In this document: positions 20,213 to 60,674 of the stretch, piece by piece
How positions within the stretch are numbered: the stretch's first letter is position 1
Layout: each line of letters begins with the position of its first letter
DNA from: Flectonema sp. DT1601
Taxonomy: Eukaryota; Euglenozoa; Diplonemea; Diplonemida; Diplonemidae
NCBI GenBank assembly: GCA_964019425.1
Contig: OZ025786.1
Span: forward strand, 1,302,001 to 1,366,000
DNA length: 64,000 nucleotides
Direction of reading: 5' to 3'
The notes under the pieces: model-generated
Databases searched by the model: none
What the model was told of the DNA's origin: nothing
Seen by the model: the letters and a program-made list of their open reading frames with translations, nothing else
Translations under genes and position numbers: made by a program

Positions 20213-20243
<31 letters not shown>

Positions 20244-21155: not shown

Positions 21156-21360
21156 AAGAATAGATCGATATCTGTTTATTTTTCTCAACGATCGGCTATA
21201 CCGATCAACCTTTAAAATAATTTCTTCTTCTCGACGATCAGATCCAATTGATTAACCTTTTCTTTTTTTTTTCCTCTATTCCTTCCATCCCTCCCGCTCC
21301 CCTATTTGTAATAAAAACAAGATCAGCTCAGCTTGATCGTTAATTTTTTTTCTTTCTTTT

Positions 21361-30329: not shown

Positions 30330-30331
30330 TA

Positions 30332-30934
30332 GTGATAAGAACTCAATCTGACATGGGTTCTCAAACCCCCTTGTACAAAAAAAAAGAAGGAAAATTAAGG
30401 CTGAAACTTTCCTTGAAATGCCAGATTTTAGAAAACGAACTAGAACAAATGAAAGAACGAATGTTTTATGTTCTATTTTTATTTTACTTTAATGCGATGT
30501 CAGCCTCCCTCGAGAAAGACAAGCAGTTACTAAATGGATTACCTGTTGAGATCAAAGCTACCAACCAGGATCCATCCTCACTTCCTCCTGCACCCCCTGT
30601 TTTAATTATTGAAAAAGATAGAAAAGAATATGAACTTCTGGAAGGAGTAATTCAACGGTTAACAGCAGAACGCGATGAATCGAAGACTTCTCTTTCTGCA
30701 CTAGTTCGACAATATGACTTAGTGGAAGATTACAGGAAACGTGAGCTCGCAAATCTGACTCAGAGAGCAGACCTATCGGAAATGGCGCTCTTTAATTACC
30801 ATCAAAGGTTTGTTCTTCTGTCGAACGAATTGGAGACCAAATGTAATGAGGAAAGAGAAAGTAAAATAAGACTTTTCTATACTCAACAGGAGGTCGAGAG
30901 TTTGCGTGCCGCGCGTCCCCGTATGACCCACTTT
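30332..30934 (+). pseudogene. tandem copy 2: coiled-coil part
   Basis: Repeats the coding region 27,651-28,253 (SDMGSQTPLYKKKEGK through RPRMTHF) and again runs into RT-derived sequence at the CCACTTT junction. Same frame content as copy 1. Confidence 0.8.
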
Positions 30935-33900
30935 TACCAGGAATTTTTTAAAAAAAGTCGACGCCATGCCACTATATGGGTCTCAGAAGGCTTGGTCTGT
31001 CCAACACTTGTTATTGTCAAGGTTAACATGGAGTTTAATGATCCATGACTTATCTCTCCCTTTTGCCAAAAAATTGGACAAAATTATTAAACCTTTTTTG
31101 AAGAAATGGTGGGGATTTGTCCGCTCTGCGAACACAGTCATCCTTTTTACCGGTTCAAAGAACACTGTTGGTCTCAGACACAAAAGAGTTGAGACGCTAT
31201 ATAAACAAGCGCAATCAATTAAACTAGACATCCTCAGATCCTCACAGGACTCTGACATGCACGGTGTCTACAATGTTATTATGGAGAAATCGTCCAATTG
31301 GTCGAAAAAGTTTTCAGCTTCTGCTGAGTGGGAGCGCCTTATTAAGTTTTTTTCTTACCGTTCTCTTGCGAAGCAATCAGCTGGTCTTGGTCACCGATTG
31401 CGCGATCTACGTACTACTCGCCCCGATCTCCTTAAGCGTTTTGAAGTGGAAGCCACAGATGAACTACTGAACTCTTTGAATAAATTACAAGTCCAAGGTC
31501 AGTGGAAGGAGTGGTCTAAATGTATGATAAACGACTTCACCTGGAATAAGGTACTTAGGGAGGGAAATCCTGCCTATATCTCATTTCAACTGAAAGCGGT
31601 TACAAACACCCTCCCCTCACAAGATAATTTAAAGAGGTGGAACATCACCAATGTGGACCAAAATTGTGTTTTGTGTGGCAAAGTGAATCCTACCCTCAGG
31701 CATGTCTTAACAGGCTGTCCTGTCTCTTTAACACAAGGGAGGTTCACGTGGCGTCACGACAGCGTTCTAAAACGCATTGTTATCTTCTTGGAAGAGTTGA
31801 TAATAAAAGCCAACAAAAGAAAAGAAAACCTCCCGCCTCCCTCTCAAACTTTTTTAAAAACAGGGGAAAATAAACCCCTAGAAAGAATTTCTAAAGAGAC
31901 AGGCGAACTCTCACTAGCGAATGATTGGGTCATCCTCGACGATGTCGGTGATAACCGCCTAATTGTTCCTCTTGAAGTGTGCCATGTCTCGTCCTCTCTA
32001 AGACCAGACATTTTTATTTATTCTTTTTTTGCGAAAAGAGCACTGATTCTGGAGCTGACGTGTCCAAATGAAGATCGTTTCGAAACCTCTCATGTCTTAA
32101 AGGAAAAGAAATACCTAAAGCTAAGAGACTCGATCATCGCTAATGGCTTCGACTGTAACATTTTTACTATTGAAGTTGGCGTACGAGGAAACATCTGCAT
32201 GGACCAGCTGAACATCTGGACACGTCACATCGGTTCACCTTTAGCACCAACAAAAGCTTTATTTTGTGAATGCACCAGAATCGCCAGACAGTGCTCATAT
32301 GTTCTGTTCCAGACGAGGAACCTCCCCACGTGGCATTCAAGACCACTAATGCGCAGCATTAAAGAAGAACCTGCCACCGCAAGTTTTATAAAAGATGGTA
32401 AAGAAATCTTCCCTGTGGAAGAAGTCAAAATCCACAAAGTAACAAAACTGAAAACGATCGAAAAGCTCACCATTGAAAGATCGTGGCTTGAGAAATGTTT
32501 TATCTGGCAAACTTGTTACGCATCGGCTCTTTCTATTCTACTCATTGCCAATGGTTCTTCTTCCTCCCCGGCCCCTTCTTTTTTGTTAGATGAGGATGAG
32601 CTCACTGGACTCTCCTTGTCATTCTCTTCTATTTCTTCCATCTCTCTCCAGAATTCCCCACCTGAACTCATGTCAACGGGATCGCAAACACTTCCTGCTG
32701 ATTTCGCTATAGTGATAAGAAGTCAATCTGACATGGGTTCCCAAACCCCCTTGTACAATAAAAAAGAAGGAAGATTAAGGCTGAAACTTTCCTTGAAATG
32801 CCAGATTTTAGAAAACGAACTAGAACAAATGAAAGAACGAATGTTTTATGTTCTATTTTTATTTTACTTTAATGCGATGTCAGCCTCCCTTGAGAATGAC
32901 AAGCAGCTACTGAATGGATTGTCTATTGAGAACAAAGCATCCAAACAACGGGCCGCCGAGAGTGTATCTCACAGCCCACTCCCTTTAAATCTATCCGCAC
33001 CCCCATCTGTCTTTAACGTAGAAACGGAACAGAAAAAACGTGAACTATTGGAAAAAGAGAATCAACACCTGATCGCTGAATGTGATTTAGTGAAAAGTTC
33101 TCTTCTCTCATTAGTTCAAAGAACTAACTCTCTGGAGGAAAAAAGGACGAGCGAGCTGGCGCGACAATCACAAAGAGCGGACCACGCTGAAATGTTTTAT
33201 TTCAACTTACAACAAAGGTTCATTCTATTAAACAATGAATTAGAATCTAAGTGTAGGGACGAAACTGGAACAAAAATTCAACTCTATTTGTCTCAACAAG
33301 AGGTCGCAACATTGCGTGCTGGCCCTCAACTGTCCCATTTTTCCCAACAATTTTCCCCAACACCCCCTTTTTTATTCGAATCAACGTCCACGGTAAAGAA
33401 TTATCGACTCCCTCTCATCGCAACAACCTATTACTCCTGGACTCCCAAACCCCGTCTTTCCTTTTTTTTTAAACCTCATTCTCCATTGATCACGTTCCCT
33501 TCTGAACTGTCTCAAAGTAGACTACTGGTATCGTCTTCTGCTCAAACGGAACAAGAAAAAGACAGTGCGGCGACCTCATCGACGGAAGATTCACCTATTG
33601 CGAGGCAATGGTCCGAAGGTAGACTCGATTTACTGGACAACTACTGTCAAGCGGTAAGTGACTCTCTCCAGACAAATGAGAAAGTGGCGCTGCTCTCGGA
33701 AAAACTAGTGGAAGAGCAACGTCGATGCTCCGAGTTGAGCTATCAACAGAAGACTATCCATAAAGAACAACTGGATCATTCCATGTTGTTGATGGAGATG
33801 GCCAGTGAGCTCTCTGAGCAACTCTATTTGGCAAAAGACCAAAACAGAGCTCTCAAATTTCAGTTACAAACATGGGCAAATGGTTTTAACCCACCCGAAA

Positions 33901-34025
33901 AGGAAGCGCAAGAAGAAAATGAGACCCCAAAGCGTCCGAGGGAGCGCCTATCCCAAAAAAAGCGAACTCCACCCTCAACGAATCCTCATGATCGCAGAAG
34001 AATCTTTTTAGATGACGATTGCTAA
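30935..34025 (+). CDS. LINE L1 protein, 5'-truncated: RT end, CCHC, endonuclease, coiled-coil extension
   Basis: The reading frame 30,966-34,025 (1,019 residues) starts in the RT thumb region, so no RT catalytic motifs are present. It has the CCHC motif, the RPD...ELTCPNED endonuclease, then no MITE and a long C-terminal extension. This extension differs from that of L0/L2 after NGLSIENKASKQ: it shares LLEKENQHLIAE, LVQRTNSLEEKRTSELARQ, a SPIARQWSEGRLDLLDNYC block, further heptads (EKLVEEQRRCSELSYQQ) and a basic tail ending KKRTPPSTNPHDRRR. L1 is thus a second subfamily, closer to the solo coiled-coil frame at 10.2 kb. The extension stays open and conserved between subfamilies, which argues that it is translated. 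Confidence 0.85.
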
Positions 34026-34330
34026 GTTCTAGTTTCTATTAGTATTAAATTATTTGTATTATTTTGTCGATATGTTTATGTCTGTCCGATCATAACGTCA
34101 ATCAGATTAATTGTTAATTGTAATTGGTTTGAGCGCTTATCAAAAAAAAAAAAAAGCGAACTCCAACCTCAACGAACTTTCATGATCGCAGAAGAATCTT
34201 TTTAGATGACGATTGCTAAGTTCTAGTTTCTATTAGTATTTATTTATTTGTATTATTTTGTCGATATGTTTATGTCCGTCAGATCATAACGTTAATCAGA
34301 TTAATTGTCAATTGTTAATTGTAAATGGTC
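33961..34330 (+). repeat. 194-bp tandem duplication across the L1 stop codon
   Basis: The segment starting AGCGAACTCCACCCTCAACG (33,961) recurs at 34,155 as AGCGAACTCCAACCTCAACG, covering the protein tail, the stop and the first 3' bases. The copies differ at several positions, and a run of A precedes the second. Confidence 0.85.
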
Positions 34331-34505
34331 TAAACCCCAATCCAAGTTCCCAAGGCTTGGCATAGATTTGAGTGACGCCTTACTGGCCTCCTCATCCTCT
34401 ATGAGTGGTGAGGGGGCCAGCAATGGTTTTTTTTTTTTTTCTCTTATTTCCTTTTTTCTTTTTCTTTTACTCTAATAGGAAATATTTTTGAACAAAATGT
34501 GATTA

Positions 34506-34540
<35 letters not shown>

Positions 34541-35785
34541 AATGAATAATAAAAAAAAAAAAAAAAAAAAAAACATGCCTTGGGAATACAACCAAAGCCC
34601 CAATTAATCGGTCCTTTCTTTTTTCCTTCTTGTCAAGTGATCGCTCCACTCGTCGATCACCAAAACCGATTGTATTTATATCTGTTCTTTTCTCAACGAT
34701 CGGCTATACCGATCTTTTTTTTAAAAATAATTGTTTTCTTCTTCTCGACGATCAGATCCAATTGATCGACCTTTTCTTTTTTTTTCCTTTATTCCTTCCA
34801 TCCCTCCCGCTCCCCTTATTTTAATAAAAACAAGATCAGCACAGCTTGATCGTTAAACTTTTTTTATTTATTTATTTTTTTTTTTTTTTTTATTTAAACT
34901 GATTGTATTTATATCTGGTTATTTTTCTCAACGATCGGCTATGCCGATCGACCATTAAAATAATTGTCTTCTTCTTCTCGACGACCAGATCCAATTGATC
35001 GACCTTTTCTTTTTTTTTCCTTTATTCCTTCCATCCCTCCCGCTCCCCTTATTTTAATAAAAACAAGATCAGCTCAGCTTGATCGTTATTTATTTATTTA
35101 TTTATTTTTTTTTTTTTTTTGTTGGTCCTAGTCAAGACCTTAAACTGACTAATCGGTCTTAACTTTAACTAAGTGAATGAACCCTTTCCGTTTTCCTTTT
35201 CCCTTTATTACTCTCTATCTGGTCTGTTATGTCATAAATCTCATTTAATTTTATCATTCATTTTAATTTTCACTGTTTCCCATCTACATTTTATTTTCAA
35301 ATAGTTCCGGTCTGTCTCTGATGTTAAATAAAACTGATCATGTTAACTCAATATTTTTTTTTATTATGTGCAAGAGATACCAACACGCAAGAGATACCAA
35401 CGCACATACGAGATACCAGCACTTCCGAGATACCGACACACAAGAGATACCAAGACACTTAAGATACCAGCAAGGACAGTGAGAGGTAGAATGAACTCTC
35501 CTCCTTGTGTCCGATCCTGATTATTTTTTGTTGAATTGGTAGTGTTACCTCAGTTTGCTACTCTCGTATCTGTGTTGTGTTAACTCATGTAAGTGATCTT
35601 AACTCCTGTTAAATAAAAAAAAAATTTCAAAAAAAAAGAAATTAAAAAAGAAGAATTTTCAAATGAAGTTATATCAACCCCTGCCACCCATTATGATCAA
35701 TTCCGCTTGTTTTTTTTTTTTTTTTTTTTTTTTTCTTCTTTCTTTTCTTCAAATATAAAAAAAAATTAAAAAATATAAAAGATGA
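34026..35785 (+). other. LINE L1 3' region, proximal part
   Basis: Non-coding. In order it holds: the segment with GTCTAAACCCCAATCCAAGT and CCTCCTCATCCTCTATGAGT; homopolymer runs; CATGCCTTGGGAATACA; two units of a roughly 190-bp repeat with hairpins CGATCGG-CTATA-CCGATC and GATCA...TGATC; the hairpin GGTC-CTAGTCAA-GACC followed by TTAAACTGACTAA; a cluster of GAGATACCA repeats (35,365-35,470); and CCCCTGCCACCCATTATG just before the array. The same order occurs after 43,405 (L2) and 56,146 (L0), so it is a constant part of the LINE. Confidence 0.85.
35365..35470 (+). repeat. AGAGATACCAA short tandem repeat
   Basis: About six degenerate copies of a roughly 17-base unit (AGAGATACCAACACGCA and variants). 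The same block appears at about 44,617-44,722 in L2 and about 57,207-57,304 in L0, so it predates these copies. Confidence 0.85.
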
Positions 35786-36297
35786 AACAATGTTATCATT
35801 GTTTTTTTTATCGATCGACTATGTCGATTACTTCCAGTTTTCCGTCCTGGTCAAGACGCTAAACTGATTGTTTTTTTTTTTTTTTTTAAAAAATTAATAA
35901 AAAGAATATAAAAAAAAAAAAAAAAGAATAAACAATGTTATCATTGTTTTTTTTTATCGTTCGACTTTGTCGACTAATTTCTATTTTCCGTTTCTTTTCT
36001 TTAAATAATAAATAAAAAGAATTTAAAATAAAAAAAAAGAATAAACAATGTTATCATTGTTTTTTTATCGATCGACTATGTCGATTACTTTCTATTTTCC
36101 GTCCTGGTCAAGACGCTAAACTGATTGTTTTTTTTTCAAAATTAATAAAAAAGAATAAAAAAAAAAAAAAAAAAAAAAAGAATAAACAATGTTATCATTG
36201 TTTTTTTATCGATCGACTATGTCGATCACTTTCTATTTTCCGTCCTGGTCAAGACGCTAAACTGATTGTTTTTTTTTTCAAAATTAATAAAAAAGAA

Positions 36298-36328
<31 letters not shown>

Positions 36329-38930
36329 GAATAAACAATGTTATCATTGTTTTTTTTATCGTTCGACTTTGTTGACTAATTTCTATTTTCCGTTTTTTTT
36401 CTTTTAAAAAATAAATAAAAAGAATTTAAAATAAAAAAAAAGAATAAACAATGTTATCATTGTTTTTTTATCGATCGACTATGTCGATCACTTTCTATTT
36501 TCCGTCCTGGTCAAGACGCTAAACTGATTGTTTTTTTTCAAAATTAATAAAAAAGAATATAAAAAAAAAAAAAAAAAAGAATAAACAATGTTATCATTGT
36601 TTTTTTTTTTATCGTTCGACTTTGTCGACTAATTTCTATTTTCCGTTTCTTTTCTTTAAAGAATAAATAAAAAGAATTTAAAATAAAAAAAAAGAATAAA
36701 CAATGCTATCATTGTTTTTTTTATCGATCGACTATGTCGATCACTTTCTATTTTCCGTCCTGGTCAAGACGCTAAACTGATTGTTTTTTTTTTTCAAAAT
36801 TAATAAAAAAGAATATAAAAAAATACAAAAAAAAAGAATAAACAATGTTATCATTGTTTTTTTTTATCGTTCGACTTTGTCGACTAATTTCTATTTTCCG
36901 TTTTTTTTCTTTTAAAAATAAATAAAAAGAATTTAAAATAAAAAAAAAGAATAAACAATGTTATCATTGTTTTTTTATCGATCGACTATGTCGATCACTT
37001 TCTATTTTCCGTCCTGGTCAAGACGCTAAACTGATTGTTTTTTTTTTTTCAAAATAAAAAAAAAATATTAAAAAAAAAAAAATAAAAAAAAAAAAGAATA
37101 AACAATGTTATCATTGTTTTTCTTTATCGTTCGACTTTGTTGACTAATTTCTATTTTCCGTTTTTTTTTCTTTAAAAAATAAATAAAAAGAATTTAAAAA
37201 AAAAAAAAAAAAAAAAAGAATAAACAATGTTATCATTGTTTTTTTTATCGATCGACTATGTCGATTACTTTCTATTTTCCGTCCTGGTCAAGACGCTAAA
37301 CTGATTGTTTTTTTTCAAAATTAATAAAAAAGAATATAAAAAAATACAAAAAAAAGAATAAACAATGTTATCATTGTTTTCTTTATCGATCGACTATGTC
37401 GATTACTTTCTATTTTCCGTCCTGGTCAAGACGCTAAACTGATTGTTTTTTTTTCAAAATTAATAAAAAAGAATATAAAAAAATACAAAAAAAAGAATAA
37501 ACAATGTTATCATTGTTTTTTTTATCGATCGACTATGTCGATTACTTTCTATTTTCCGTCCTGGTCAAGACGCTAAACTGATTGTTTTTTTTTCAAAATT
37601 AATAAAAAAGAATATAAAAAAATACAAAAAAAAGAATAAACAATGTTATCATTGTTTTTTTTATCGATCGACTATGTCGATTACTTTCTATTTTCCGTCC
37701 TGGTCAAGACGCTAAACTGATTGTTTTTTTTTTCAAAATTAATAAAAAAGAATATAAAAAAATACAAAAAAAAGAATAAACAATGTTATCATTGTTTTTT
37801 TTATCGATCGACTATGTCGATTACTTTCTATTTTCCGTCCTGGTCAAGACGCTAAACTGATTGTTTTTTTTTTCAAAATAAAAAAAAAATATTAAAAAAA
37901 AAAAAATAAAAAAAAAGAATAAACAATGTTATCATTGTTTTTTTTTATCGTTCGACTTTATTGACTAATTTCTATTTTCCGTTTTTTTTCTTTAAAAAAT
38001 AAAAAAAAAGAATTTAAAAAAAAAAAAAAAAAAAGAATAAACAATGTTATCATTGTTTTTTTTATCGATCGACTATGTCGATTACTTTCTATTTTCCGTC
38101 CTGGTCAAGACGCTAAACTGATTGTTTTTTTTTCAAAATTAATAAAAAAAAAGAATATAAAAAAATACAAAAAAAAGAATAAACAATGTTATCATTGTTT
38201 TTTTTTATCGTTCGACTTTGTCGACTAATTTCTATTTTCCGTTTTTTTTCTTTAAAAAATTAATAAAAAGAATTTAAAATAAAAAAAAAAAAGAATAAAC
38301 AATGTTATCATTGTTTTTTTTATCGATCGACTATGTCGATTACTTTCTATTTTCCGTCCTGGTCAAGACGCTAAACTGATTGTTTTTTTTTTCAAAATTA
38401 ATAAAAAAGAATATAAAAAAAATAAAAAAAAAAAAGAATAAACAATGTTATCATTGTTTTTTTTTATCGTTCGACTTTGTTGACTAATTTCTATTTTCCA
38501 TTTTTTTTCTTTTTAAAAATAAATAAAAAGAATTAAAATAAAAAAAAAAAAAAAAGAATAAACAATGTTATCATTGTTTTTTTTATCGATCGACTATGTC
38601 GATTACTTTCTATTTTCCGTCCTGGTCAGGACGCTAAACTGATTGTTTTTTCTTTAAAAATAAATAAAAAGAATAAAAAAAAAAAAAAAAGGAATAAACA
38701 ATGTTATCATTGTTTTTTTTTTATCGATCGACTATGTCGATTACTTACTATTTTCCGTCCTGGTCAAGACGCTAAACTGATTGTTTTTTCTTTAAAATAA
38801 TTAAAAAGATTTAAAAAAAAAAAAAAAAAAAAAAAATGAATAAACAATGTTATCATTGTTTTTTTTTCTATCGATCAACTATGTCGATTAATTTCTATTT
38901 TCCGTCCTGATCGAGACGCTAAACTGATTG
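35786..38930 (+). repeat. hairpin tandem array of LINE L1
   Basis: About two dozen units of 110-150 bases. Long units have three stems: AACAATG-TTAT-CATTGTT, ATCGAC-TAT-GTCGAT, and CGTC...GACG (CGTCCTGG-TCAAGACG or the perfect CGTCCTGGTCAGGACG), then CTAAACTGATTG. Short units keep the first two stems and CTATTTTCCG but replace the third by T/A runs. Long and short units mostly alternate; between 37,340 and 37,870 about four long units follow each other almost unchanged, a recent expansion. Confidence 0.9.
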
Positions 38931-38956
38931 TTTCCTTTTTTTAAATAATAAATAAG

Positions 38957-38988
<32 letters not shown>

Positions 38989-39387
38989 ATCTCCCTGCTA
39001 TCCCTCATATCCCCACAATAATATTATACCTTTTCATTTTCTCTTTCCTTTTCTGGTCTTTTTTTTTTTCTTTTTTTCCTTTTTCATACAACGTTTTTTA
39101 TTTATATATATATATTTTTTTTTTTTTTTTTCATGTTTGATTATTTCCTCTTCATTTTTTTTTTTCTTTTCTTTTCTTTCTTTTTTTTTTTTTTTCCTCT
39201 GCCTCTCTCTTAATTCTGTTCGTTTCTTTGAAACGAAAATTCATTTGAATATTATTCCTTGGTCAGCAACCATCATTGTCGCCCTTTGGGCCTGTTAAAA
39301 AAAAATAAAATAAAAAGAAAGTTTACATCGGGAATAGGGCAGGAGCCAAAAGCTCCCAGTCCGTTACTTCCCACTTTATCGAAATTC
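38931..39387 (+). other. LINE L1 3' terminal region
   Basis: Spacer CATCTCCCTGCTATCCC, pyrimidine-rich tracts, the palindrome TTCGTTTCTTTGAAACGAA, GTCGCCCTTTGGGCCTG, the stem AGGAGCCAAAAGCTCC, and the end ACTTTATCGAAATTC. The same terminus closes every LINE copy in the window and has no poly(A) tail, as in LINEs whose RT recognises a structured 3' end. Confidence 0.85.
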
Positions 39388-39524: not shown

Positions 39525-39726
39525 GGTCAAGACGCTAAACTGATTGTTTTTTTTTTCAAAATAAAAAAAATATTAAAAAAAAAAAAATAAAAAAAAAGAA
39601 TAAACAATGTTATCATTGTTTTTTTTTTATTGTTCGACTTTGTTGACTAATTTCTATTTTCCGTTTTTTTTTCTTTAAAAAATAAATAAAAAGAATTTAA
39701 AAAAAAAAAAAAAAAAAGAATAAACA

Positions 39727-42700
39727 TTGGATTTGGCAGATGCTTTCGGCTCAGTCAAACATCAATTAATTTTCTTTGCTTTAAAATATTTCGGAATTCA
39801 CGAAAGAATAATCGGTTTCTATAAAAGGTATTATTCCTCCATGCGCGTCCAAATCAGAGTTGGAGAAGGCCTGACGCCCACTATCCCTTTTGAAGTTGGT
39901 GTCTTTCAAGGCTGCGTTTCCTCCCCAACCCTTTTTAATTTGGTATTCCAACTACTGCTCTTTTCCTTAGCAGTTCATCAACAGGAAGCCTACGAGTTTA
40001 ACAATAAATCCCTCCAACTATTAGTTGCAGCTTTTGCTGATGATTTACAACTTACCACGTCATCAAAGGCGGGGGCAAAATTGCTAATCAAGTCGCTCGA
40101 ACAGTTTCTTTCCTGGTCTCGTGGTATGAAAGCGAAACCCCAGAAATGCATTGCCCACAGCTTTGTACAAGGGAAACCAGCTAACCCGGACCTGAAGATT
40201 AACAATGTTCCGATTACGAATCTCCAGGAAGCTGGAGAGTTCAAATACCTCGGGCGTTGGTTTGAGCCGAACGCCAAAGAACAGAAATTGCGAGAGCGCC
40301 TGACCACTTTTACCAGGAATTTTTTAAAAAAAGTCGACGCCATGCCACTATATGGGTCTCAGAAGGCTTGGTCTGTCCAACACTTGTTATTGTCAAGGTT
40401 AACATGGAGTTTAATGATCCATGACTTATCTCTCCCTTTTGCCAAAAAAATGGACAAAATTATTAAACCTTTTTTGAAGAAATGGTGGGGATTTGTCCGC
40501 TCTGCGAACACAGTCATCCTTTTTACCGGTTCAAAGAATACTGTTGGTCTCAGACACAAAAGAGTTGAGACGCTATATAAACAAGCGCAATCAATTAAAC
40601 TAGACATCCTCAGATCCTCACAGGACTCTGACATGCACGGTGTCTACAATGTTATTATGGAGAAATCGTCCAACTGGTCGAAAAAGTTTTCAGCTTCTGC
40701 TGAGTGGGAGCGCCTTATTAAGTTTTTTTCTTACCGTTCTCTTGCGAAGCAATCAGCTGGTCTTGGTCACCGATTGCGCGATCTACGTACTACTCGCCCC
40801 GATCTCCTTAAGCGTTTTGAAGTGGAAGCCACAGATGAACTACTGAACTCTTTGAATAAATTACAAGTCCAAGGTCAATGGAAGGAGTGGTCTAAATGTA
40901 TGATAAACGACTTCACCTGGAATAAGGTACTTAGGGAGGGAAATCCTGCCTATATCTCATTTCAACTGAAAGCGGTTACAAACACCCTCCCCTCACAAGA
41001 TAATTTAAAGAGGTGGAACATCACCAATGTGGACCAAAATTGTGTTTTGTGTGGCAAAGTGAATCCTACCCTCAGGCATGTCTTAACAGGCTGTCCTGTC
41101 TCTTTAACACAAGGGAGGTTCACGTGGCGTCACGACAGCGTTCTAAAACGCATTGTTATCTTCTTGGAAGAGTTGATAATAAAAGCCAACAAAAGAAAAG
41201 AAAACCTTCCGCCTCCCTCTCAAACTTTTTTAAAAACAGGGGAAAATAAACCCCTAGAAAGAATTTCTAAAGAGACAGGCGAACTTTCACTAGCGAATGA
41301 TTGGGTCATCCTCGACGATGTCGGTGATAACCGCCTAATTGTTCCTCTTGAAGTGTGCCATGTCTCGTCCTCTCTAAGACCAGACATTTTTATTTATTCT
41401 TTTTTTGCGAAAAGAGCACTGATTCTGGAGCTGACGTGTCCAAATGAAGATCGTTTCGAAACCTCTCATGTCTTAAAGGAAAAGAAATACCTAAAGCTAA
41501 GAGACTCGATCATCGCTAATGGCTTCGACTGTAACATTTTTACTATTGAAGTTGGCGTACGAGGAAACATCTGCATGGACCAGCTGAACATCTGGACACG
41601 TCACATCGGTTCACCTTTAGCACCAACAAAAGCTTTATTTTGTGAATGCACCAGAATCGCCAGACAGTGCTCATATGTTCTGTTCCAGACGAGGAACCTC
41701 CCCACGTGGCATTCAAGACCACTAATGCGCAGCATTAAAGAAGAACCTGCCACTGCAAGTTTTATAAAAGATGGTAAAGAAATCTTCCCTGTGGAAGAAG
41801 TCAAAATCCACAAAGTAACAAAACTGAAAACGATCGAAAAGCTCACCATTGAAAGATCGTGGCTTGAGAAATGTTTTATCTGGCAAACTTGTTACGCATC
41901 GGCTCTTTCTATTCTACTTGTTGCCAATGGTTCTTCCTCCCCGGCCCCTTCTGTTTTGTTAGATGAGGATGAGCTCACTGGACTCTCCTTGTCATTCTCT
42001 TCTATTTCTTCCATCTCTTTCCAGACTCCCCCACCTGAACTCATGTCAACGGGATCGCAAACACTTCCTGCTGATTTCGCTATAGTGATAAGAACTCAAT
42101 CTGACATGGGTTCTCAAACCCCCTTGTACAAAAAAAAAGAAGGAAAATTAAGGCTGAAACTTTCCTTGAAATGCCAGATTTTAGAAAACGAATTAGAGCA
42201 AATGAAAGAACGAATTTTTTATGTTCTATTTTTATTTTACTTTAATGCGATGTCAGCCTCCCTCGAGAAAGACAAGCAGTTACTAAATGGATTACCTGTT
42301 GAGATCAAAGCTACCAACCAGGATCCATCCTCACTTCCTCCTGCACCCCCTGTTTTAATTATTGAAAAAGATAGAAAAGAATATGAACTTCTGGAAGGAG
42401 TAATTCAACGGTTAACAGCAGAACGCGATGAATCGAAGACTTCTCTTTCTGCACTAGTTCGACAATATGACTTAGTGGAAGATTACAGGAAACGTGAGCT
42501 CGCAAATCTGACTCAGAGAGCAGACCTATCGGAAATGGCGCTCTTTAATTACCATCAAAGGTTTGTTCTTCTGTCGAACGAATTGGAGACCAAATGTAAT
42601 GAGGAAAGAGAAAGTAAAATTAGACTTTTCTATACTCAACAGGAGGTCGAGAGTTTGCGTGCCGCGCGTCCCCGTATGACCCACTTTAGTCAACAAGTTT

Positions 42701-43404
42701 CCCCCCGAACCCCCGTTCTGTATGAATCTGTTGCTATGATGAAGATAGCAAAGAACTACCTCTCGCTCTTTACAACTACGAGTAGTCTTTTTACTCCTCT
42801 TATTAAACCCCTTATCCCTACCCTTAATTATATCACCCCTCTTTGTCCTCTAGCCTCAATTCCTCCGACAATGCCGCAGAGTGAAGCTCTCGACCGCACG
42901 CCGACCAAGATTTTACGACAAGAGAGTCACGTTATCTCCGTTAAAGAGAATACACCTATTGCGAGACAATGGTCCGAGGGTAGGATTGACTTACTCGAGA
43001 ACTACTGTCGAGCAGTAGATGACTCTCTCGAAACAAACGAGAAAGCGGCAGAGCTCTCAGAACAACTTCTGGATGCCCAACTTCGCCTCTCGGAGCTGAA
43101 TCACCAACGGTGTACAACTCACGCAGAGCAGCTTGAGCAATCCATGATGTTAACGGGACTGGCGAGCGATTTAAATGCTCAACTCGCTTTGGCACGGTCT
43201 CAAATTGCGGCCCTGAAGTTCCAATTAGCTTCATGGGCAGAAGGTTTGAGTCCGCCAGACACAGAAGAACATGAGGAAAATGAAACTCCGCCGAGAAAGT
43301 CTGAGCGTTCAACTCTGAAAAAACGAACCCCTCCATCAAGATATCGTTACAATCGAAGGAGATGTTCTGCTGATGACGTTCACGGTGACTCCACCCCCTT
43401 GTAA
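39727..43404 (+). CDS. LINE L2 protein, 5'-truncated but otherwise intact frame
   Basis: An open frame of 1,225 codons without interruption. Its first codon is TTG at the junction (other copies read GTGGATTTGGC), so it has no natural start. It contains RT motif A (Asp2), GVFQGCVSSPTLFN, FADD (103-106), KYLGRW, the CCHC motif C439-C442-H451-C456, and the endonuclease R551-P-D553...E568-LTCPNED...KKY588. From about residue 700 to 1225 follows the coiled-coil extension: ILENELEQMKER, LTAERDESKTSLSAL, LSNELETKCNEERESK, then a Pro-rich link, IARQWSEGRIDLLENYC, EKAAELSEQLLDAQLRLSEL and a basic tail (PPRKSERSTLKKRTPP). It lacks the zinc fingers and the first RT half, so it cannot be autonomous. It is the best reference for the C-terminal half. 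Confidence 0.9.
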   Translation: MDLADAFGSVKHQLIFFALKYFGIHERIIGFYKRYYSSMRVQIRVGEGLTPTIPFEVGVFQGCVSSPTLFNLVFQLLLFSLAVHQQEAYEFNNKSLQLLVAAFADDLQLTTSSKAGAKLLIKSLEQFLSWSRGMKAKPQKCIAHSFVQGKPANPDLKINNVPITNLQEAGEFKYLGRWFEPNAKEQKLRERLTTFTRNFLKKVDAMPLYGSQKAWSVQHLLLSRLTWSLMIHDLSLPFAKKMDKIIKPFLKKWWGFVRSANTVILFTGSKNTVGLRHKRVETLYKQAQSIKLDILRSSQDSDMHGVYNVIMEKSSNWSKKFSASAEWERLIKFFSYRSLAKQSAGLGHRLRDLRTTRPDLLKRFEVEATDELLNSLNKLQVQGQWKEWSKCMINDFTWNKVLREGNPAYISFQLKAVTNTLPSQDNLKRWNITNVDQNCVLCGKVNPTLRHVLTGCPVSLTQGRFTWRHDSVLKRIVIFLEELIIKANKRKENLPPPSQTFLKTGENKPLERISKETGELSLANDWVILDDVGDNRLIVPLEVCHVSSSLRPDIFIYSFFAKRALILELTCPNEDRFETSHVLKEKKYLKLRDSIIANGFDCNIFTIEVGVRGNICMDQLNIWTRHIGSPLAPTKALFCECTRIARQCSYVLFQTRNLPTWHSRPLMRSIKEEPATASFIKDGKEIFPVEEVKIHKVTKLKTIEKLTIERSWLEKCFIWQTCYASALSILLVANGSSSPAPSVLLDEDELTGLSLSFSSISSISFQTPPPELMSTGSQTLPADFAIVIRTQSDMGSQTPLYKKKEGKLRLKLSLKCQILENELEQMKERIFYVLFLFYFNAMSASLEKDKQLLNGLPVEIKATNQDPSSLPPAPPVLIIEKDRKEYELLEGVIQRLTAERDESKTSLSALVRQYDLVEDYRKRELANLTQRADLSEMALFNYHQRFVLLSNELETKCNEERESKIRLFYTQQEVESLRAARPRMTHFSQQVSPRTPVLYESVAMMKIAKNYLSLFTTTSSLFTPLIKPLIPTLNYITPLCPLASIPPTMPQSEALDRTPTKILRQESHVISVKENTPIARQWSEGRIDLLENYCRAVDDSLETNEKAAELSEQLLDAQLRLSELNHQRCTTHAEQLEQSMMLTGLASDLNAQLALARSQIAALKFQLASWAEGLSPPDTEEHEENETPPRKSERSTLKKRTPPSRYRYNRRRCSADDVHGDSTPL

Positions 43405-43738
43405 TTCTCTTTTTCCTTACTTTCACATCACTTTGTTTATTTAGTTTTTTAGCTTATTTATTATTTATTGTTCGTTTTTGTTTGTATTATTTTATCGATA
43501 TGTTTATGTCCGTCAGATCATAACGTTAATCAGGTTAATTGTTAATTGTTAATTATAAATGGTCTAAACCCCAATCCAAGTTCCCAAGGCTTGGCATAGA
43601 TTTGAGTGACGCCTTACTGGCCTCCTCATCCTCTATGAGTGGTGAGGGGGCCAGCAATGGTTTTTTTTTTTTTCTCTTATTTCTTTTTTTCTTTTTCTTT
43701 TACTCTAATATGAAATATTTTTGAACAAAATGTGATTA

Positions 43739-43770
<32 letters not shown>

Positions 43771-45025
43771 TGTAAATGAATAATAAAAAAAAAAAAAAAA
43801 AAAAATCATGCCTTGGGAATACAACCAAAGCCCCAATTAATCGGTCCTTTCTTTTTTCCTTCTTGTCAAGTGATCGCTCCACTCGTCGATCACCAAAACC
43901 GATTGTATTTATATCTGTTCTTTTCTCAACGATCGGCTATACCGATCATTTTTTTTAAAAATAATTGTTTTCTTCTTCTCGACGATCAGATCCAATTGAT
44001 CGACCTTTTCTTTTTTTTTCCTTTATTCCTTCCATCCCTCCCGCTCCCCTTATTTTAATAAAAACAAGATCAGCTCAGCTTGATCGTTAAACTTTTTTTA
44101 TTTATTTATTTTTTTTTTTTATTTATTTAAACTGATTGTATTTATATCTGGTTATTTTTCTCAACGATCGGCTATGCCGATCGACCTTTAAAATAATTGT
44201 CTTCTTCTTCTCGACGACCAGATCCAATTGATCGACCTTTTCTTTTTTTTTCCCTTTATTCCTTCCATCCCTCCCGCTCCCCTTATTTTAATAAAAACAA
44301 GATCAGCTCAGCTTGATCGTTATTTATTTATTTATTTATATATTTTTTTTTTTTTTTTTTTTTTTTTGTTGGTCCTAGTCAAGACCTTAAACTGACTAAT
44401 CGGTCTTAACTTTAACTAAGTGAATGAACCCTTTCCGTTTTCCTTTTCCCTTTATTACTCTCTATCTGGTCTGTTATGTCATAAATCTCATTTAATTTTA
44501 TCATTCATTTTAATTTTCACTGTTTCCCATCTACATTTTATTTTCAAATAGTTCCGGTCTGTCTCTGATGATAAATTAAACTGATCATGTTAACTCAATT
44601 TTTTTTTTATTATGTGCAAGAGATACCAACACGCAAGAGATACCAACGCACATACGAGATACCAGCACTTCCGAGATACCGACACACAAGAGATACCAAG
44701 ACACTTAAGATACCAGCAAGGACAGTGAGAGGTAGAATGAACTCTCCTCCTTGTGTCCGATCCTGATTATTTTTTGTTGAATTGGTAGTGTTACCTCATT
44801 TTGCTACTCTCGTATCTGTGTTGTGTTAACTCATGTAAGTGATCTTAACTCCTGTTAAATAAAAAAAAAAAAATTTCAAAAAAAAAGAAATTAAAAAAGA
44901 AGAATTTTCAAATGAAGTTATATCAACCCCTGCCACCCATTATGATCAATTCCGCTTGTTTTTTTTTTTTTCTTTTTTCTTCTTTCTTTTCTTCAAATAT
45001 AAAAAAAAATTAAAAAATATAAAAG
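43405..45025 (+). other. LINE L2 3' region, proximal part
   Basis: Same order of segments as after L1: GTCTAAACCCCAATCC, two units of the 190-bp repeat with GATCGGCTATRCCGATC hairpins, GGTCCTAGTCAAGACC, the GAGATACCA cluster (44,617-44,722) and CCCCTGCCACCCATTATG. It is highly similar to L1, with small differences in homopolymer length. Confidence 0.85.
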
Positions 45026-48000
45026 ATGAAACAATGTTATCATTGTTTTTTTTATCGATCGACTATGTCGATTACTTCCAGTTTTCCGTCCTGGTCAAGA
45101 CGCTAAACTGATTGTTTTTTTTTTTTTTTTTTTTAAAAAATTAATAAAAAGAATATATTAAAAAAAAAAAAAAAAAGAATAAACAATGTTATCATTGTTT
45201 TTTTTTATCGTTCGACTCTGTCGACTAATTTCTATTTTCCGTTTCTTTTCTTTAAATAATAAATAAAAAGAATTTAAAATAAAAAAAAGGAATAAACAAT
45301 GTTATCATTGTTTTTTTATCGATCGACTATGTCGATTACTTTCTATTTTCCGTCCTGGTCAAGACGCTAAACTGATTGTTTTTTTTTTCAAAATTAATAA
45401 AAAAGAATATTAAAAAAAAAAAAAAAAAAAAAAAAGAATAAACAATGTTATCATTGTTTTTTTTTATTGTTCGACTTTGTTGACTAATTTCTATTTTCCG
45501 TTTTTTTTCTTTAAAAAATAAATAAAAAGAATTTAAAATAAAAAAAAAGAATAAACAATGTTATCATTGTTTTTTTATCGATCGACTATGTCGATCACTT
45601 TCTATTTTCCGTCCTGGTCAAGACGCTAAACTGATTGTTTTTTTTTTCAAAATTAATAAAAAAGAATACTGCAACTGGAAATATTACTGCGCGGAAAAAA
45701 CCGCACTAATTTCCAAATCTGCAAAAAACCGCACTAATTTTTCCACGCAGTAATATTTCCACCGCACTAATATTTCTGCTCAGAAGTGATTTTTTCTCCA
45801 GCTGCATTTTTCTGCTGGTGCCTTACACAGCAAAAAAGCAACCAAATTTTTTTCTACCACCAAGTGGAAAAAACCGCACTAATCTTTTCTCAAAAAAACC
45901 GCACTAATTTTTCCGCGCAGTAATATTTCCCCGCAGTAATTATTCAGCGCAGTAATATTTCCAGTTGCAGTATAAAAAAAAAAAAAAAAAAAAAAAAAAT
46001 AAACAATGTTATCATTGTTTTTTTTATCGTTCGACTTTGTTGACTAATTTCTATTTTCTGTTTTTTTTTCTTTAAAAAAAAAATAAATAAAAAGAATTTA
46101 AAATAAAAAAAAAGAATAAACAATGTTATCATTGTTTTTTTATCGATCGACTATGTCGATCACTTTCTATTTTCCGTCCTGGTCAAGACGCTAAACTGAT
46201 TGTTTTTTTTTCAAAATTAATAAAAAAGAATATAAAAAAAAAAAAAAAAAAAAGAATAAACAATGTTATCATTGTTTTTTTTTTTATCGTTCGACTTTGT
46301 CGACTAATTTCTATTTTCCGTTTCTTTTCTTTAAAGAATAAATAAAAAGAATTTAAAATAAAAAAAAAAGAATAAACAATGTTATCATTGTTTTTTTTAT
46401 CGATCGACTATGTCGATCACTTTCTATTTTCCGTCCTGGTCAAGACGCTAAACTGATTGTTTTTTTTTTTCAAAATTAATAAAAAAGAATATAAAAAAAT
46501 ACAAAAAAAAGAATAAACAATGTTATCATTGTTTTTTTTATCGTTCGACTTTGTCGACTAATTTCTATTTTCCGTTTTTTTTCTTTAAAAAATAAATAAA
46601 AAGATTTTAAATAAAAAAAAAGAATAAACAATGTTATCATTGTTTTTTTATCGATCGACTATGTCGATCACTTTCTATTTTCCGTCCTGGTCAAGACGCT
46701 AAACTGATTGTTTTTTTTTTCAAAATTAATAAAAAAGAATATAAGAAAAAAAAAAAAAAAGAATAAACAATGTTATCATTGTTTTTTTTTATCGTTCGAC
46801 TTTGTCGACTAATTTCTATTTTCCGTTTCTTTTCTTTAAAGAATAAATAAAAAGAATTTAAAATAAAAAAAAAGAATAAACAATGTTATCATTGTTTTTT
46901 TATCGATCGACTATGTCGATCACTTTCTATTTTCCGTCCTGGTCAAGACGCTAAACTGATTGTTTTTTTTTTTTCAAAATTAATAAAAAAGAATATAAAA
47001 AAAAAAAAAAAAAAGGAAAAACAATGTTATCATTGTTTTTTTTTTATCGTTCGACTTTGTCGACTAATTTCTATTTTCCGTTTCTTTTCTTTAAAGAATA
47101 AATAAAAAGAATTTAAAATAAAAATAAAAAAAAAGAATAAACAATGTTATCATTGTTTTTTTTTATCGATCGACTATGTCGATCACTTTCTATTTTCCGT
47201 CCTGGTCAAGACGCTAAACTGATTGTTTTTTTTTTTCAAATTAATAAAAAAGAATATAAAAAAATACAAAAAAAAGAATAAACAATGTTATCATTGTTTT
47301 TTTTATCGTTCGACTTTGTCGACTAATTTCTATTTTCCGTTTTTTTTTTTCTCTTTAAAAAATAAATAAAAAGAATCTAAAATAAAAAAAAAGAATAAAC
47401 AATGTTATCATTGTTTTTTTATCGATCGACTATGTCGATCACTTTCTATTTTCCGTCCTGGTCAAGACGCTAAACTGATTGTTTTTTTTTTTTTTTCAAA
47501 ATTAATAAAAAAGAATATTAAAAAAAATACAAAAAAAAAAAGAATAAACAATGTTATCATTGTTTTTTTTTTTATCGTTCGACTTTGTCGACTAATTTCT
47601 ATTTTCCGTTTCTTTTCTTTAAAGAATAAATAAAAAGAATTTAAAATAAAAATAAAAAAAAAGAATAAACAATGTTATCATTGTTTTTTTTTATCGATCG
47701 ACTATGTCGATCACTTTCTATTTTCCGTCCTGGTCAAGACGCTAAACTGATTGTTTTTTTTTTTCAAATTAATAAAAAAGAATATAAAAAAATACAAAAA
47801 AAAGAATAAACAATGTTATCATTGTTTTTTTTATCGTTCGACTTTGTCGACTAATTTCTATTTTCCGTTTTTTTTTTTCTCTTTAAAAAATAAATAAAAA
47901 GAATCTAAAATAAAAAAAAAGAATAAACAATGTTATCATTGTTTTTTTATCGATCGACTATGTCGATCACTTTCTATTTTCCGTCCTGGTCAAGACGCTA

Positions 48001-49085
48001 AACTGATTGTTTTTTTTTTTTTTTCAAAATTAATAAAAAAGAATATTAAAAAAAATACAAAAAAAAAAAGAATAAACAATGTTATCATTGTTTTTTTTTT
48101 TATCGTTCGACTTTGTCGACTAATTTCTATTTTCCGTTTTTTTTCTTTAAAAAATAAATAAAAAGAATTTAAAATAAAAAAAAAGAATAAACAATGTTAT
48201 CATTGTTTTTTTTTATCGATCGACTATGTCGATTACTTTCTATTTTCCGTCCTGGTCAAGACGCTAAACTGATTGTTTTTTTTTTCAAAATAAAAAAAAT
48301 ATTAAAAAAAAAAAATAAAAAAAAAGAATAAACAATGTTATCATTGTTTTTTTTTTTATCGTTCGACTTTGTTGACTAATTTCTATTTCCGTTTTTTTTC
48401 TTTAAAAAATAAATAAAAAGAATTTAAAAAAAAAAAAAAAAAAAAGAATAAACAATGTTATCATTGTTTTTTTTATCGATCGACTATGTCGATTACTTTC
48501 TATTTTCCGTCCTGGTCAAGACGCTAAACTGATTGTTTTTTTTTCAAAATAAAAAAAATATTAAAAAAAAAAAAATAAAAAAAAGAATAAACAATGTTAT
48601 CATTGTTTTTTTTTATCGTTCGACTTTGTTGACTAATTTCTATTTTCCGTTTTTTTTCTTTAAAAAATTAATAAAAAGAATTTAAAAAAAAAAAAAAAAA
48701 GAATAAACAATGTTATCATTGTTTTTTTTATCGATCGACTATGTCGATTACTTTCTATTTTCCGTCCTGGTCAAGACGCTAAACTGATTGTTTTTTCTTT
48801 AAAAATAAATAAAAAGAATAAAAAAAAAAAAAAAGGAATAAACAATGTTATCATTGTTTTTTTTTTATCGATCGACTATGTCGATTACTTACTATTTTCC
48901 GTCCTGGTCAAGACGCTAAACTGATTGTTTTTTCTTTAAAATAATTAAAAAGATTTAAAAAAAAAAAAAAAAAAAAAAAATGAATAAACAATGTTATCAT
49001 TGTTTTTTTTTCTATCGATCAACTATGTCGATTAATTTCTATTTTCCGTCCTGATCGAGACGCTAAACTGATTGTTTCCTTTTTT
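45026..49085 (+). repeat. hairpin tandem array of LINE L2, with higher-order repeats
   Basis: Nearly thirty units of the long and short forms, mostly alternating. A block of about 530 bases (from about 47,105) is repeated directly after itself (about 47,635 on) with almost no change, showing growth by block duplication. A MITE interrupts the array at 45,669-45,970. Confidence 0.9.
45669..45970. mobile_element. 302-bp MITE in the L2 array
   Basis: Same element as at 27,347: CTGCAACTGG...CCAGTTGCAG flanked by TA, inserted in the AAGAATATAAAA linker of an array unit. A few bases differ from the other copies (CCAGCTGCATTT versus CCAGATGCATTT; ACCAAGTGG versus ACCAGGTGG), so this is an independent insertion. 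Confidence 0.9.
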
Positions 49086-49474
49086 TAAATAATAAATAAG
49101 AAAAAAAAAAAAAAAAAAAAAAAAAGAGCATCTCCCTGCTATCCCTCATATCCCCACAATAATATTATACCTTTTCATTTTCTCTTTCCTTTTCTGGTCT
49201 TTTTTTTTTCTTTTTTTTCCTTTTTCATACAACGTTTTTTATTTATATATATATTTTTTTTTTTTTTTTTTTTTCATGTTTGATTATTTCCTCTTCATTT
49301 TTTTTTTCTTTTCTTTTCTTTCTTTTTTTTTTTTTTTCCTCTGCCTCTCTCTTAATTCTGTTCGTTTCTTTGAAACGAAAATTCATTTGAATATTATTCC
49401 TTGGTCAGCAACCATCATTGTCGCCCTTTGGGCCTGTTAAAAAAAAATAAAAATAAAAAGAAAGTTTACATCGG

Positions 49475-50308
49475 AGTTGAATTTCCAGGTGAGATTTGGA
49501 CTGTTAGCTTTTGGCTAAGGCCCTCCCTGAAGAGCAAGAACAAAAAAACTACTCACACCTGAAGAAAACATACACAAAGAACACACTGTAAGCTGTGTGT
49601 GTATTTTGTGTTTGTCACAACAGGAGAGAAAAGAAAGAATGTCAAGGTTGGTCACCTTGCCTATCAACGCACAACATTGGTGGTCTCTACTAGACCCTGA
49701 GTGATCCCACTGGATCTCTCATCGTTCATAGTACCCTGTGTGAAGTTATAAAATCAAAGGTAAACTATGAACTACAAATGACTTAGCCTGTTATTATAAT
49801 GCCACAGGCAGGCCCTGCATTCAGCAACTATCCAGCAGTGCTTGGATGTCCTGATCTTCTTCTAAAAAAAAGAAAGAAAAACAAAACTGTAGCTGGGATC
49901 ACTCAGGATCAACAGACTACCAATGCTACCTGTTGTACTTGCTCACTATGGGGGGTGATGCCAAACACCCAGAAGTACTTAACTACTTTCCTTCTTGCTG
50001 CCCAGGAGTTTCTGACCAGAACTAATAGAAAATAAAAAGTAGATGGGAAACAATAAAAAGTAAAATGGATATAACTGAAGTTAAACAAGACAAATGAGGT
50101 AACAGACCAGAACAGAAAGAGGATTGTAATAGAAGATTACAAATAAAAGAAATGCAAGTATCAACACATAATCAAGATACACCAGCAGCTAACAAACAAC
50201 ATAAAATTGAAGATCAGTTGCCAGAGTATTTCAACCATGGTAGAATACTCGCCCCTCTGGCAGGGATTATCCCAGACTTGTCCTTTAATTTAGTTGGACA
50301 CCATGGCA
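49475..50308 (+). repeat. R1 repeat, short form, inserted in the L2 3' terminal region
   Basis: It separates ACATCGG (49,474) from GGAATAGGGCAGG (50,309), which are contiguous in all other LINE ends. It runs from AGTTGAATTTCCAGGTGAG to GGACACCATGGCA, the same end points as the copy at 21,361. The 5' part reads CAG/GTGAG and the 3' junction reads GCAG/G, which resemble splice-site consensus. Confidence 0.8.
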
Positions 50309-50365
50309 GGAATAGGGCAGGAGCCAAAAGCTCCCAGTCCGTTACTTCCCACTTTATCGAAATTC

Positions 50366-52883: not shown

Positions 52884-53098
52884 TTAAAGAGAATACACCT
52901 ATTGCGAGACAATGGTCCGAGGGTAGGATTGACTTACTCGAGAATTACTGTCGAGCAGTAGATGACTCTCTCGAAACAAACGAGAAAGCGGCAGAGCTCT
53001 CAGAACAACTTCTGGATGCCCAACTTCGCCTCTCGGAGCTGAATCACCAACGGTGTACAACTCACGCAGAGCAGCTTGAGCAATCCATGATGTTAACG
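52884..53098 (+). pseudogene. LINE L0 protein, part 6
   Basis: Encodes ENTPIARQWSEGRIDLLENY through EQLEQSMMLT of the coiled-coil extension, as in L2 42,945-43,157. It is interrupted by a short reverse LINE 3' end. Confidence 0.85.
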
Positions 53099-53422
53099 AT
53101 TTTCGATAAAGTGGGAAGTAACGGACTGGGAGCTTTTGGCTCCTGCCCTATTCCCGATGTAAACTTTCTTTTTATTTTTTATTTTTTTTAACAGGCCCAA
53201 AGGGCGACAATGATGGTTGCTGACCAAGGAATAATATTCAAATGAATTTTCGTTTCAAAGAAACGAACAGAATTAAGAGAGAGGCAGAGAAAAAAAAGAA
53301 AAAAAAGAAAGAAAAGAAAAAAGAAAAAAAATATGAAGAGGAAATAATCAAACATGAAAAAAAAAAAAAAAAAAAATATATAAATAAAAAAAACGTTGTA
53401 TGAAAAAGGAAAAAAAAAATAA
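53099..53422 (-). mobile_element. short 5'-truncated LINE 3' end inside L0
   Basis: About 325 bases of the LINE terminus in reverse orientation (TTTCGATAAAGTGGGAAG to CATACAACG region). The L0 sequence ATGTTAACG/GGACTGGCG is split without loss or duplication, a clean blunt-type insertion. Confidence 0.85.
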
Positions 53423-54302: not shown

Positions 54303-54337
<35 letters not shown>

Positions 54338-54704: not shown

Positions 54705-54738
<34 letters not shown>

Positions 54739-57545: not shown

Positions 57546-57561
57546 TTAAACAATGTTATCA

Positions 57562-57610
<49 letters not shown>

Positions 57611-60649: not shown

Positions 60650-60674
60650 ACCTGAAAAAACAAATTTGCAACTG

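What the first reader, a model, noticed from the sequence alone, without database searches (positions are those of the whole stretch)
35786..38930. LINE 3' region built from a tandem array of three-hairpin units
Each LINE copy carries between its stop codon and its 3' end an array of 5 to about 30 units with stems AACAATG/CATTGTT, ATCGAC/GTCGAT and CGTC/GACG separated by T- and A-runs. Array length varies greatly between copies while the terminal segment is invariant. A retrotransposon that transmits a satellite-like array inside its own RNA could seed satellites, or use repeated stem-loops for packaging, localisation or protein binding.
Basis: partly seen in the sequence, partly recalled or inferred. 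Interest (0 to 1): 0.8.

Follow-up and report, generated by a model that had tools for sequence, protein, structure and literature searches.

The report
LINE with a tandem-array terminal repeat
A jumping gene (LINE) in an unidentified eukaryote carries, inside its own 3' end, an array of up to about 30 repeats whose number varies, and the end of the same array-plus-tail block also stands in front of nearly all complete copies, so it looks built like an element with long terminal repeats.

Summary
The window has 96 units (64 long, 32 short; the third stem belongs to the long type), in arrays between a fixed LINE 3'UTR end and a terminal segment of about 400 nt. Genome-wide (89.5 Mb): 14,543 exact first hairpins, control 0; 986 terminal-segment starts, 387 UTR ends. 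Of fetched loci, 29 of 30 UTR ends and 27 of 30 terminal starts (26 by a stricter criterion) have units next to them. The LINE has restriction-like-endonuclease motifs.

New here: of 77 complete LINE 5' ends, 71 (exact pattern) to 76 (up to 3 mismatches) follow directly on the LINE's own 3' terminus. In one subtype 19 of 20 carry the same marker unit 585-586 bp upstream. Array plus tail thus behaves as a terminal direct repeat inherited with the element.

Against packaging: at most one compensatory cell in 659 distinct units; hairpin function is unproven. In 146 kb the longest run touching no LINE border had 25 units. New variant of known kinds (SVA VNTR, Ogre 3'UTR arrays, HeT-A, Penelope pLTR).

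The parts
35786..38981 (+). array of 24 units in LINE copy 1 (16 long, 8 short)
34026..35709 (+). 3'UTR of copy 1, with a 233-bp tandem duplication (34663-35120) holding hairpins such as GATCGGC-TAT-GCCGATC, similar in shape to the unit's second hairpin
30927..34025 (+). 3' part of the LINE open frame of copy 1 (a stretch of about 2.68 kb is repeated in 25564-32711)
38982..39387 (+). terminal segment of copy 1, with hairpin GGAGC-CAAAA-GCTCC near its end and ...TTTATCGAAATTC as last letters
39724..43404 (+). LINE open frame of copy 2 (starts inside the RT domain; zf-RVT; restriction-like endonuclease motifs; long C-terminal extension)
43405..44958 (+). 3'UTR of copy 2
45030..49122 (+). array of 29 units in copy 2, with a foreign insert at about 45668-45974
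49123..50365 (+). terminal segment of copy 2, split by a repeat insert at about 49475-50308; what follows is another LINE's frame
53846..56145 (+). 13-unit array directly after a shortened 3'UTR, plus terminal segment (55746-56145)
57500..59470 (+). 5-unit array between UTR end (57499) and terminal segment (58267-59470, with a foreign insert at about 58405-59190)
19696..20435 (+). 5'-truncated copy: 2 units plus terminal segment
15177..16229 (-). 5 units plus terminal segment, cut on its 5' side by a 28S-bearing element
59474..64000 (+). array pieces split by inserts at 60446-61606 and about 62027-62960, continuing beyond the window to a terminal segment at 65022 (L069:1022)
20940..21160 (-). 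terminal-segment-only copy without array
53098..53420 (-). terminal-segment-only copy without array, inside a LINE frame

Best explanation
This is a LINE with restriction-like-endonuclease motifs whose 3' end is a variable array of long and short units followed by a tail of about 400 nt. The end of the same block (last units plus tail) stands directly upstream of nearly all complete 5' ends, so the mobile unit is best written [array-tail]-5'UTR-ORF-3'UTR-[array-tail]. Shown by sequence: the array lies inside the element; copies are cut off at many levels from the 5' side, as target-primed reverse transcription gives; in one pair of copies the array differs by one whole dimer beside an identical UTR; in one subtype the upstream block is the same in 19 of 20 copies. 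Inferred: transcripts start in or upstream of the upstream array, run through tail, ORF and second array, and are primed near the terminal hairpin; the upstream repeat supplies the promoter region, as in HeT-A; array length changes by slippage or exchange between units. The array hairpins as such need no function in this model.
For: Array bracketed by LINE sequences: 29 of 30 fetched UTR ends and 27 of 30 fetched terminal starts; 3 of 3 UTR ends and 6 of 6 terminal starts in the window. Of 77 5' ends, 71 match an exact tail-5'UTR pattern and 76 match with up to 3 mismatches. Exact marker unit 585-586 bp upstream of 19 of 20 junctions of the CTTATCG subtype, on 11 contigs, and again 9,685-9,942 bp downstream in 12 of the 20. 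The 1,201 bp upstream of the junction in C4 and C8, with five first hairpins, differ by one gap. In L029 and L032 the upstream block ends at different points in or near the last units. L041 and L042: UTR 1000 of 1000 identical, arrays differ by one long-short dimer in the part seen. The terminal hairpin recurs in a second repeat family with two compensated pairs, 61 matches of GGAGC/GCTCC and 26 of TTAGC/GCTAA (loci overlap in part).
Against: No RNA data: transcript start, end and promoter are unknown. Only six upstream blocks were read as sequence (L029, L032, L078-L081), and L078 and L079 are neighbours. In 8 of the 20 marked copies the exact marker was not found 9.7-9.9 kb downstream. 6 of 77 5' ends do not match the exact junction pattern. 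The window itself contains no match to the 5' end pattern.
Confidence: 0.6

Rival explanations
1. Passive VNTR: the array is a by-product of slippage, template switching and unequal exchange on an A/T-run-rich unit, carried along without function, at either end. (This rival concerns function and can hold together with the terminal-repeat layout.)
For: Stems and loops are conserved to a similar degree, with at most one compensatory cell. Whole-dimer difference between copies with identical UTR. Arrays of 5 to 29 units occur in copies with both borders.
Against: The last three units are nearly fixed types across copies while inner ones vary. The array was present at 29 of 30 fetched UTR ends, so it is not readily lost.
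Confidence: 0.4
2. RNA element: repeated stem-loops bind the LINE protein, or U-run/hairpin/U-run/A-run modules form ENE-like triple helices that stabilise the RNA.
For: Units fold somewhat better than shuffles (z down to -3.29). The proposed stems pair in 95% (second, long type) and 98% (third) of cells against 0.3-50% when slid, though the structure was taken from the consensus itself. The order U-run, hairpin, U-run, A-run recurs along the arrays. The 3'UTR holds hairpins of similar shape; its GCC form differs from the unit by one compensated pair.
Against: 0 compensatory cells in hairpins 1 and 3 and 0-1 in hairpin 2 among 659 distinct units. No Rfam match at gathering level in the arrays and only sub-threshold ones at E up to 5 in a 781-base piece, none of them a triple-helix family. 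Run lengths vary freely.
Confidence: 0.2
3. Template jumping: monomeric RNAs start at the 5'UTR, and reverse transcriptase regularly jumps from the 5' end of one RNA to the 3' end of another, giving tail-5'UTR junctions.
For: R2-type enzymes are known for such jumps (recalled). Array sequence joined to mid-ORF at 39526-39727 and in L073 near 7436 could be jumps. Head-to-tail copies in C1.
Against: Hardly any 5' end without the tail (1 of 77 by the loose pattern); junctions of a few fixed subtypes; the same marker unit at the same distance in 19 of 20 copies argues for inheritance rather than fresh jumps.
Confidence: 0.2
4. An independent satellite that LINEs merely insert into.
For: 18 of 48 distinct termini are followed by array sequence. 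103 of 318 units are in runs that touch no LINE border.
Against: Arrays make up 29.9% of the 146 kb examined, so 18 of 48 is no clear preference. Array borders are the same LINE sequences in copy after copy.
Confidence: 0.03

Closest known systems
SVA and LAVA VNTR composite retrotransposons (PMC4432496, outline and abstract seen)
   Same: VNTR inside an RNA moved by LINE machinery; conserved unit arrays at both ends of the VNTR and organised inner units; VNTR expands and contracts.
   Different: SVA and LAVA are non-autonomous, with a central VNTR of GC-rich 30-50 bp units; here the LINE has its own RT and endonuclease motifs, and array units also lie upstream of the 5'UTR.
Ogre LTR retrotransposons with tandem repeats in the 3'UTR (PMC7004042, passages seen; it cites Macas 2009, not seen)
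   Same: Hypervariable 3'UTR tandem arrays carried by a retroelement, a source of satellites.
   Different: LTR element; in Lathyrus sativus satellites did arise, here none was seen in what was fetched.
HeT-A, TAHRE and TART of Drosophila (PMC5537684, passages seen)
   Same: Long 3'UTR; head-to-tail copies in which the 3' end of one precedes the 5'UTR of the next; the paper says that from promoter to promoter this resembles an LTR element; TART has PNTR repeats (that these link its two ends is recalled).
   Different: Those sit at telomeres; the islands here are not at the ends of the contigs whose lengths were seen; no promoter activity is known here.
Penelope-like elements with pLTRs (PMC11167929, passages seen)
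   Same: Tandem or partial-tandem copies give repeats at both ends.
   Different: Other RT class with GIY-YIG nuclease and hammerhead ribozyme; here RLE motifs, and no Rfam hammerhead match in the window at gathering level.
R2 proteins (PDB 9nl2 and others)
   Same: RT similarity; CCHC plus RPD...E...K motif as recalled for RLE LINEs, invariant in the alignment.
   Different: Not inserted at one 28S site here; long array; long C-terminal extension.

Membership tests
RLE-type LINE | RT of the LINE/R2 kind | tested here: met
   RVT_1 E 1.2e-26; best solved relatives are R2 proteins
RLE-type LINE | CCHC and RPD...E...K endonuclease motif after the RT (motif recalled) | tested here: met
   invariant C440 C443 H452 C457, R552 P553 D554, E569, K585 in 8 aligned sequences
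RLE-type LINE | copies truncated from the 5' side | tested here: met
   1098, 986, 387, 139, 77 pattern matches from 3' to 5'; terminal sites upstream of 5' ends are included in the first two
R2 (28S-specific) | insertion at one 28S site | tested here: not met
   48 distinct 3' flanks: array 18, LINE ORF/UTR 11, other repeats 3 (one of them the 28S-bearing element), other 16
VNTR-bearing retrotransposon (works like SVA) | array inside the mobilised unit, varying by whole units | tested here: met
Satellite DNA | long arrays independent of the element | tested here: inconclusive
   in 146 kb the longest run touching no LINE border has 25 units and abuts a truncated LINE frame; unit positions were listed for only the first 100 of 14,543
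LTR-like or pLTR-like terminal repeat | same block at both ends, inherited together | tested here: met
   19 of 20 upstream markers, 12 of 20 with the marker again 9,685-9,942 bp downstream; one subtype only
LTR-like or pLTR-like terminal repeat | transcription starts inside the repeat | not testable with these tools
   no RNA data
Functional RNA hairpin array | compensatory changes in stems | tested here: not met
   0 cells in h1, 0-1 in h2, 0 in h3 among 659 distinct units; most pairs hardly vary, so the test has little power

The most novel reading that the evidence does not exclude
A LINE has acquired long terminal direct repeats made of a tandem hairpin array plus a tail, reproduced through RNA without LTR-type strand transfer. 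The upstream array is the promoter region and the downstream one the template end, so that only partial-tandem copies are active and LINEs grow as nested islands.
Probability: 0.4. Interest if true: 0.8.

Novelty: new variant of a known kind. Interest (0 to 1): 0.6.

Why it matters
It would show a LINE with R2-like enzymes reaching an LTR-like layout by way of tandem copies, as has been discussed for HeT-A. It also gives a large natural set (14,543 exact first hairpins, 986 terminal starts, 77 complete 5' ends) in which to watch how an array inside an RNA-copied element grows and shrinks: one dimer of difference beside 1000 identical UTR bases is already visible.

Tried and rejected
Satellite-first reading: disfavoured because array borders are LINE sequence in copy after copy. 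Array as preferred target: 18 of 48 flanks against 29.9% array content of the 146 kb, no clear excess. rRNA connection: the 28S matches lie in a separate element bounded by inverted GGGAAAACC ends, one copy of which is inserted in an array, not in the LINE. Second element type with the same array: the minus-strand RT/OTU frame at 17572-19695 only has a truncated LINE copy beside it. Selection on RNA folding: no support from covariation. ENE-like triple helix: only the order of runs and hairpins fits, no test passed. Centromere reading of the LINE islands: several islands per contig, not one per chromosome as reported for Zepp. A unit pattern of 29 bases in genome contigs and viral contigs: 0 matches each (the window's own records may be left out there). 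Organism not identified. Literature: the listings (titles and starts of abstracts; lists capped at 20; empty; open-licence papers only) showed me no LINE of this build; that is weak evidence of absence.

On rechecking I mended: UTR ends with array 29 of 30, not 30 of 30 (miss L057, where an opposite terminus abuts the UTR end); the C4 and C8 upstream blocks differ by one gap and have five first hairpins, not six; L023 counts as a hit by its first hairpin only.

Full report
What is there. The window (contig C7:1302001-1366000 of an 89.5-Mb, 92-contig assembly; eukaryotic 28S-like pieces) holds many copies of one LINE inserted into each other. The LINE frame has an RT domain and zf-RVT, is closest among solved structures to R2 proteins, and shares invariant CCHC and RPD...E...K positions with seven relatives. 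About 560 residues at its C-terminus, after the last invariant column, have no conserved columns in that alignment. Between the frame and the 3' end lie a 3'UTR of about 1.6 kb, the array, and a terminal segment of about 400 nt with a hairpin near its end.

The array. Cutting at the first hairpin gives 96 units in the window: 64 long (119-178 nt, and one of 448 with an insert) and 32 short (111-128 nt, and two cut off at 84 and 85); the short ones lack the third stem. The first unit of copies 1 and 2 and the last three units are nearly fixed types; inner units mostly alternate. In the window all 3 UTR ends are followed and all 6 terminal starts preceded by units. Elsewhere 29 of 30 fetched UTR ends have a unit next to them; the miss is L057, where an oppositely oriented terminus abuts the UTR end. 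Of 30 fetched terminal starts 27 have a first hairpin next to them, the misses being L014, L018 and L032; a stricter, strand-aware criterion also drops L023. L032 was later seen to hold part of a last unit. These loci are the first 30 hits in contig order, not a random sample. Arrays with both borders have 24, 29, 5, 20 and 19 units (a sixth, in the C6 tile, has 29 units but a 2.5-kb interruption). Genome-wide counts: first hairpin exact 6673 plus 7870, control 0; terminal start 986; UTR end 387; terminus 1098; RT site 139; 5' end 77. The fall from 3' to 5' is what priming at the 3' end with premature stops gives; the largest drop lies across the array.

Terminal repeat. Head-to-tail copies in C1 showed the 5'UTR starting directly after a LINE terminus. 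Of 77 5' ends in the genome, 76 match a pattern with the last letters of the terminus just before (up to 3 mismatches), and 71 match an exact junction pattern reaching back into the tail. The junctions come in a few subtypes. For the 20 of the CTTATCG subtype, a marker unit (96 exact hits by my count of the list, 431 with up to one mismatch) lies 585-586 bp upstream of 19, the exception being C55, and again 9,685-9,942 bp downstream of 12; in the other 8 the exact marker is absent downstream or lies at other distances. The blocks upstream in C4 and C8 differ by one gap in 1,201 bp, with five first hairpins. In L029 and L032 the upstream block ends at different points in or near the last units. 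I conclude that the array-tail block is part of the mobile unit at both ends; DNA-level duplication of tandem copies is not excluded. Whether it contains the promoter is inference, by analogy with HeT-A and TAHRE, for which the review PMC5537684 (passages) describes promoters in both UTRs and compares the tandem layout to an LTR element.

Array change. L041 and L042 have identical 1000-bp UTR ends, and the 1.4 kb of array seen differs by one long-short dimer; L064 and L065 (99.9%) share the pattern of long and short units but differ in spacings. SVA VNTRs also have conserved unit arrays at their ends and expand and contract, there by a microhomology-driven mechanism at the DNA level (PMC4432496, abstract). 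Here DNA-level and RNA-level routes cannot be told apart, because L041 and L042 are neighbours in one island.

Structure. Ten sequences fold with z -0.59 to -3.29. Among 659 distinct units the first hairpin is unchanged in 597; per position its loop varies less (0.19%) than its stem (0.62%). Hairpins 1 and 3 show no double compensatory cell, hairpin 2 none in 436 long units and one in all 659. Stem cells pair far more often than when slid, but the structure was read from the consensus itself. This neither shows nor excludes an RNA role; the sequence as a whole is kept or homogenised. By contrast the terminal hairpin differs by two compensated pairs between the LINE (61 matches) and a 745-bp repeat (26 matches) with the same loop and the same CAGTCC after it (overlapping loci counted more than once), as expected if both are primed by one enzyme; that the two ends are homologous is inference.

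Islands. Of the first 100 exact termini listed I used the 89 on C1-C6: they form 19 clusters at 60-kb linkage against a mean of 53.9 (minimum 43) in 1000 random placements on contigs taken as 1.8 Mb each. Of 48 distinct 3' flanks, 18 are array, 11 other LINE ORF or UTR, 3 other repeats and 16 other; 3 of the 16 are LINE 5' ends and a fourth looks like antisense 5'UTR by eye. Nesting is strong; preference for the array over the rest of the island is not shown (29.9% of 146 kb is array).

Novelty. Each ingredient has a precedent: VNTR in SVA; 3'UTR arrays in Ogre (PMC7004042 passages); tandem promoter layout in HeT-A; pLTRs in Penelope-like elements (PMC11167929 passages); nested LINE clusters in Coccomyxa (PMC3446292 passages); satellites from L1 and HeT-A 3' ends (PMC9659126 passages). 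The combination in an RLE LINE did not appear in the listings, which cover open-licence papers only and were capped.

Noticed in passing
window 60446-61606; 16229-17229 (-); L072:2369 on; a relative from about 22250: Element with inverted GGGAAAACC ends that carries a piece of 28S rRNA (across the region known as the R2 site, recalled) and tRNA-like stretches (by eye; ARAGORN found no tRNA); one copy sits inside an array. The piece from 22250 has rRNA-like sequence in the other direction (by eye).
   Followed up: partly
window 14437-15183, 21437-22187, 49478-50225, 50487-51231, 51845-52589: Repeat of about 745 bp (longer in some copies) whose end has hairpin TTAGC-CAAAA-GCTAA-CAGTCC, a compensated version of the LINE's terminal hairpin: possible SINE-like partner.
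   Followed up: partly
C1-C6 of G000: LINE termini lie in islands, several per contig: 89 exact termini in 19 clusters.
   Followed up: partly
window 25564-32711: Part of the LINE frame of copy 1 is repeated with a period of about 2.68 kb, copies about 99% alike.
   Followed up: no
window 39526-39727; L073 near 7436: Array sequence joined directly to a truncated LINE frame, as if reverse transcriptase had jumped templates or the LINE had inserted in an array.
   Followed up: partly
window 17572-19695 (-): Open frame with weak RT similarity and an OTU protease domain.
   Followed up: no
window 45668-45974: Insert with CCGCACTAATATTTCC repeats in the array of copy 2; the same kind of sequence interrupts the LINE frame at about 27346-27649 and 30027-30330.
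   Followed up: no
window 58405-59190: Insert with inverted ends ATATATCAGTCATTCC in a LINE terminal segment.
   Followed up: no
Homologous-protein table: Related LINE-like proteins carry extra Pfam labels: PF00443 and PF13423 (P0009, P0013), PF14487 (P0010), PF02902 (P0018); names ubiquitin hydrolase, DarT and Ulp1 are recalled.
   Followed up: no
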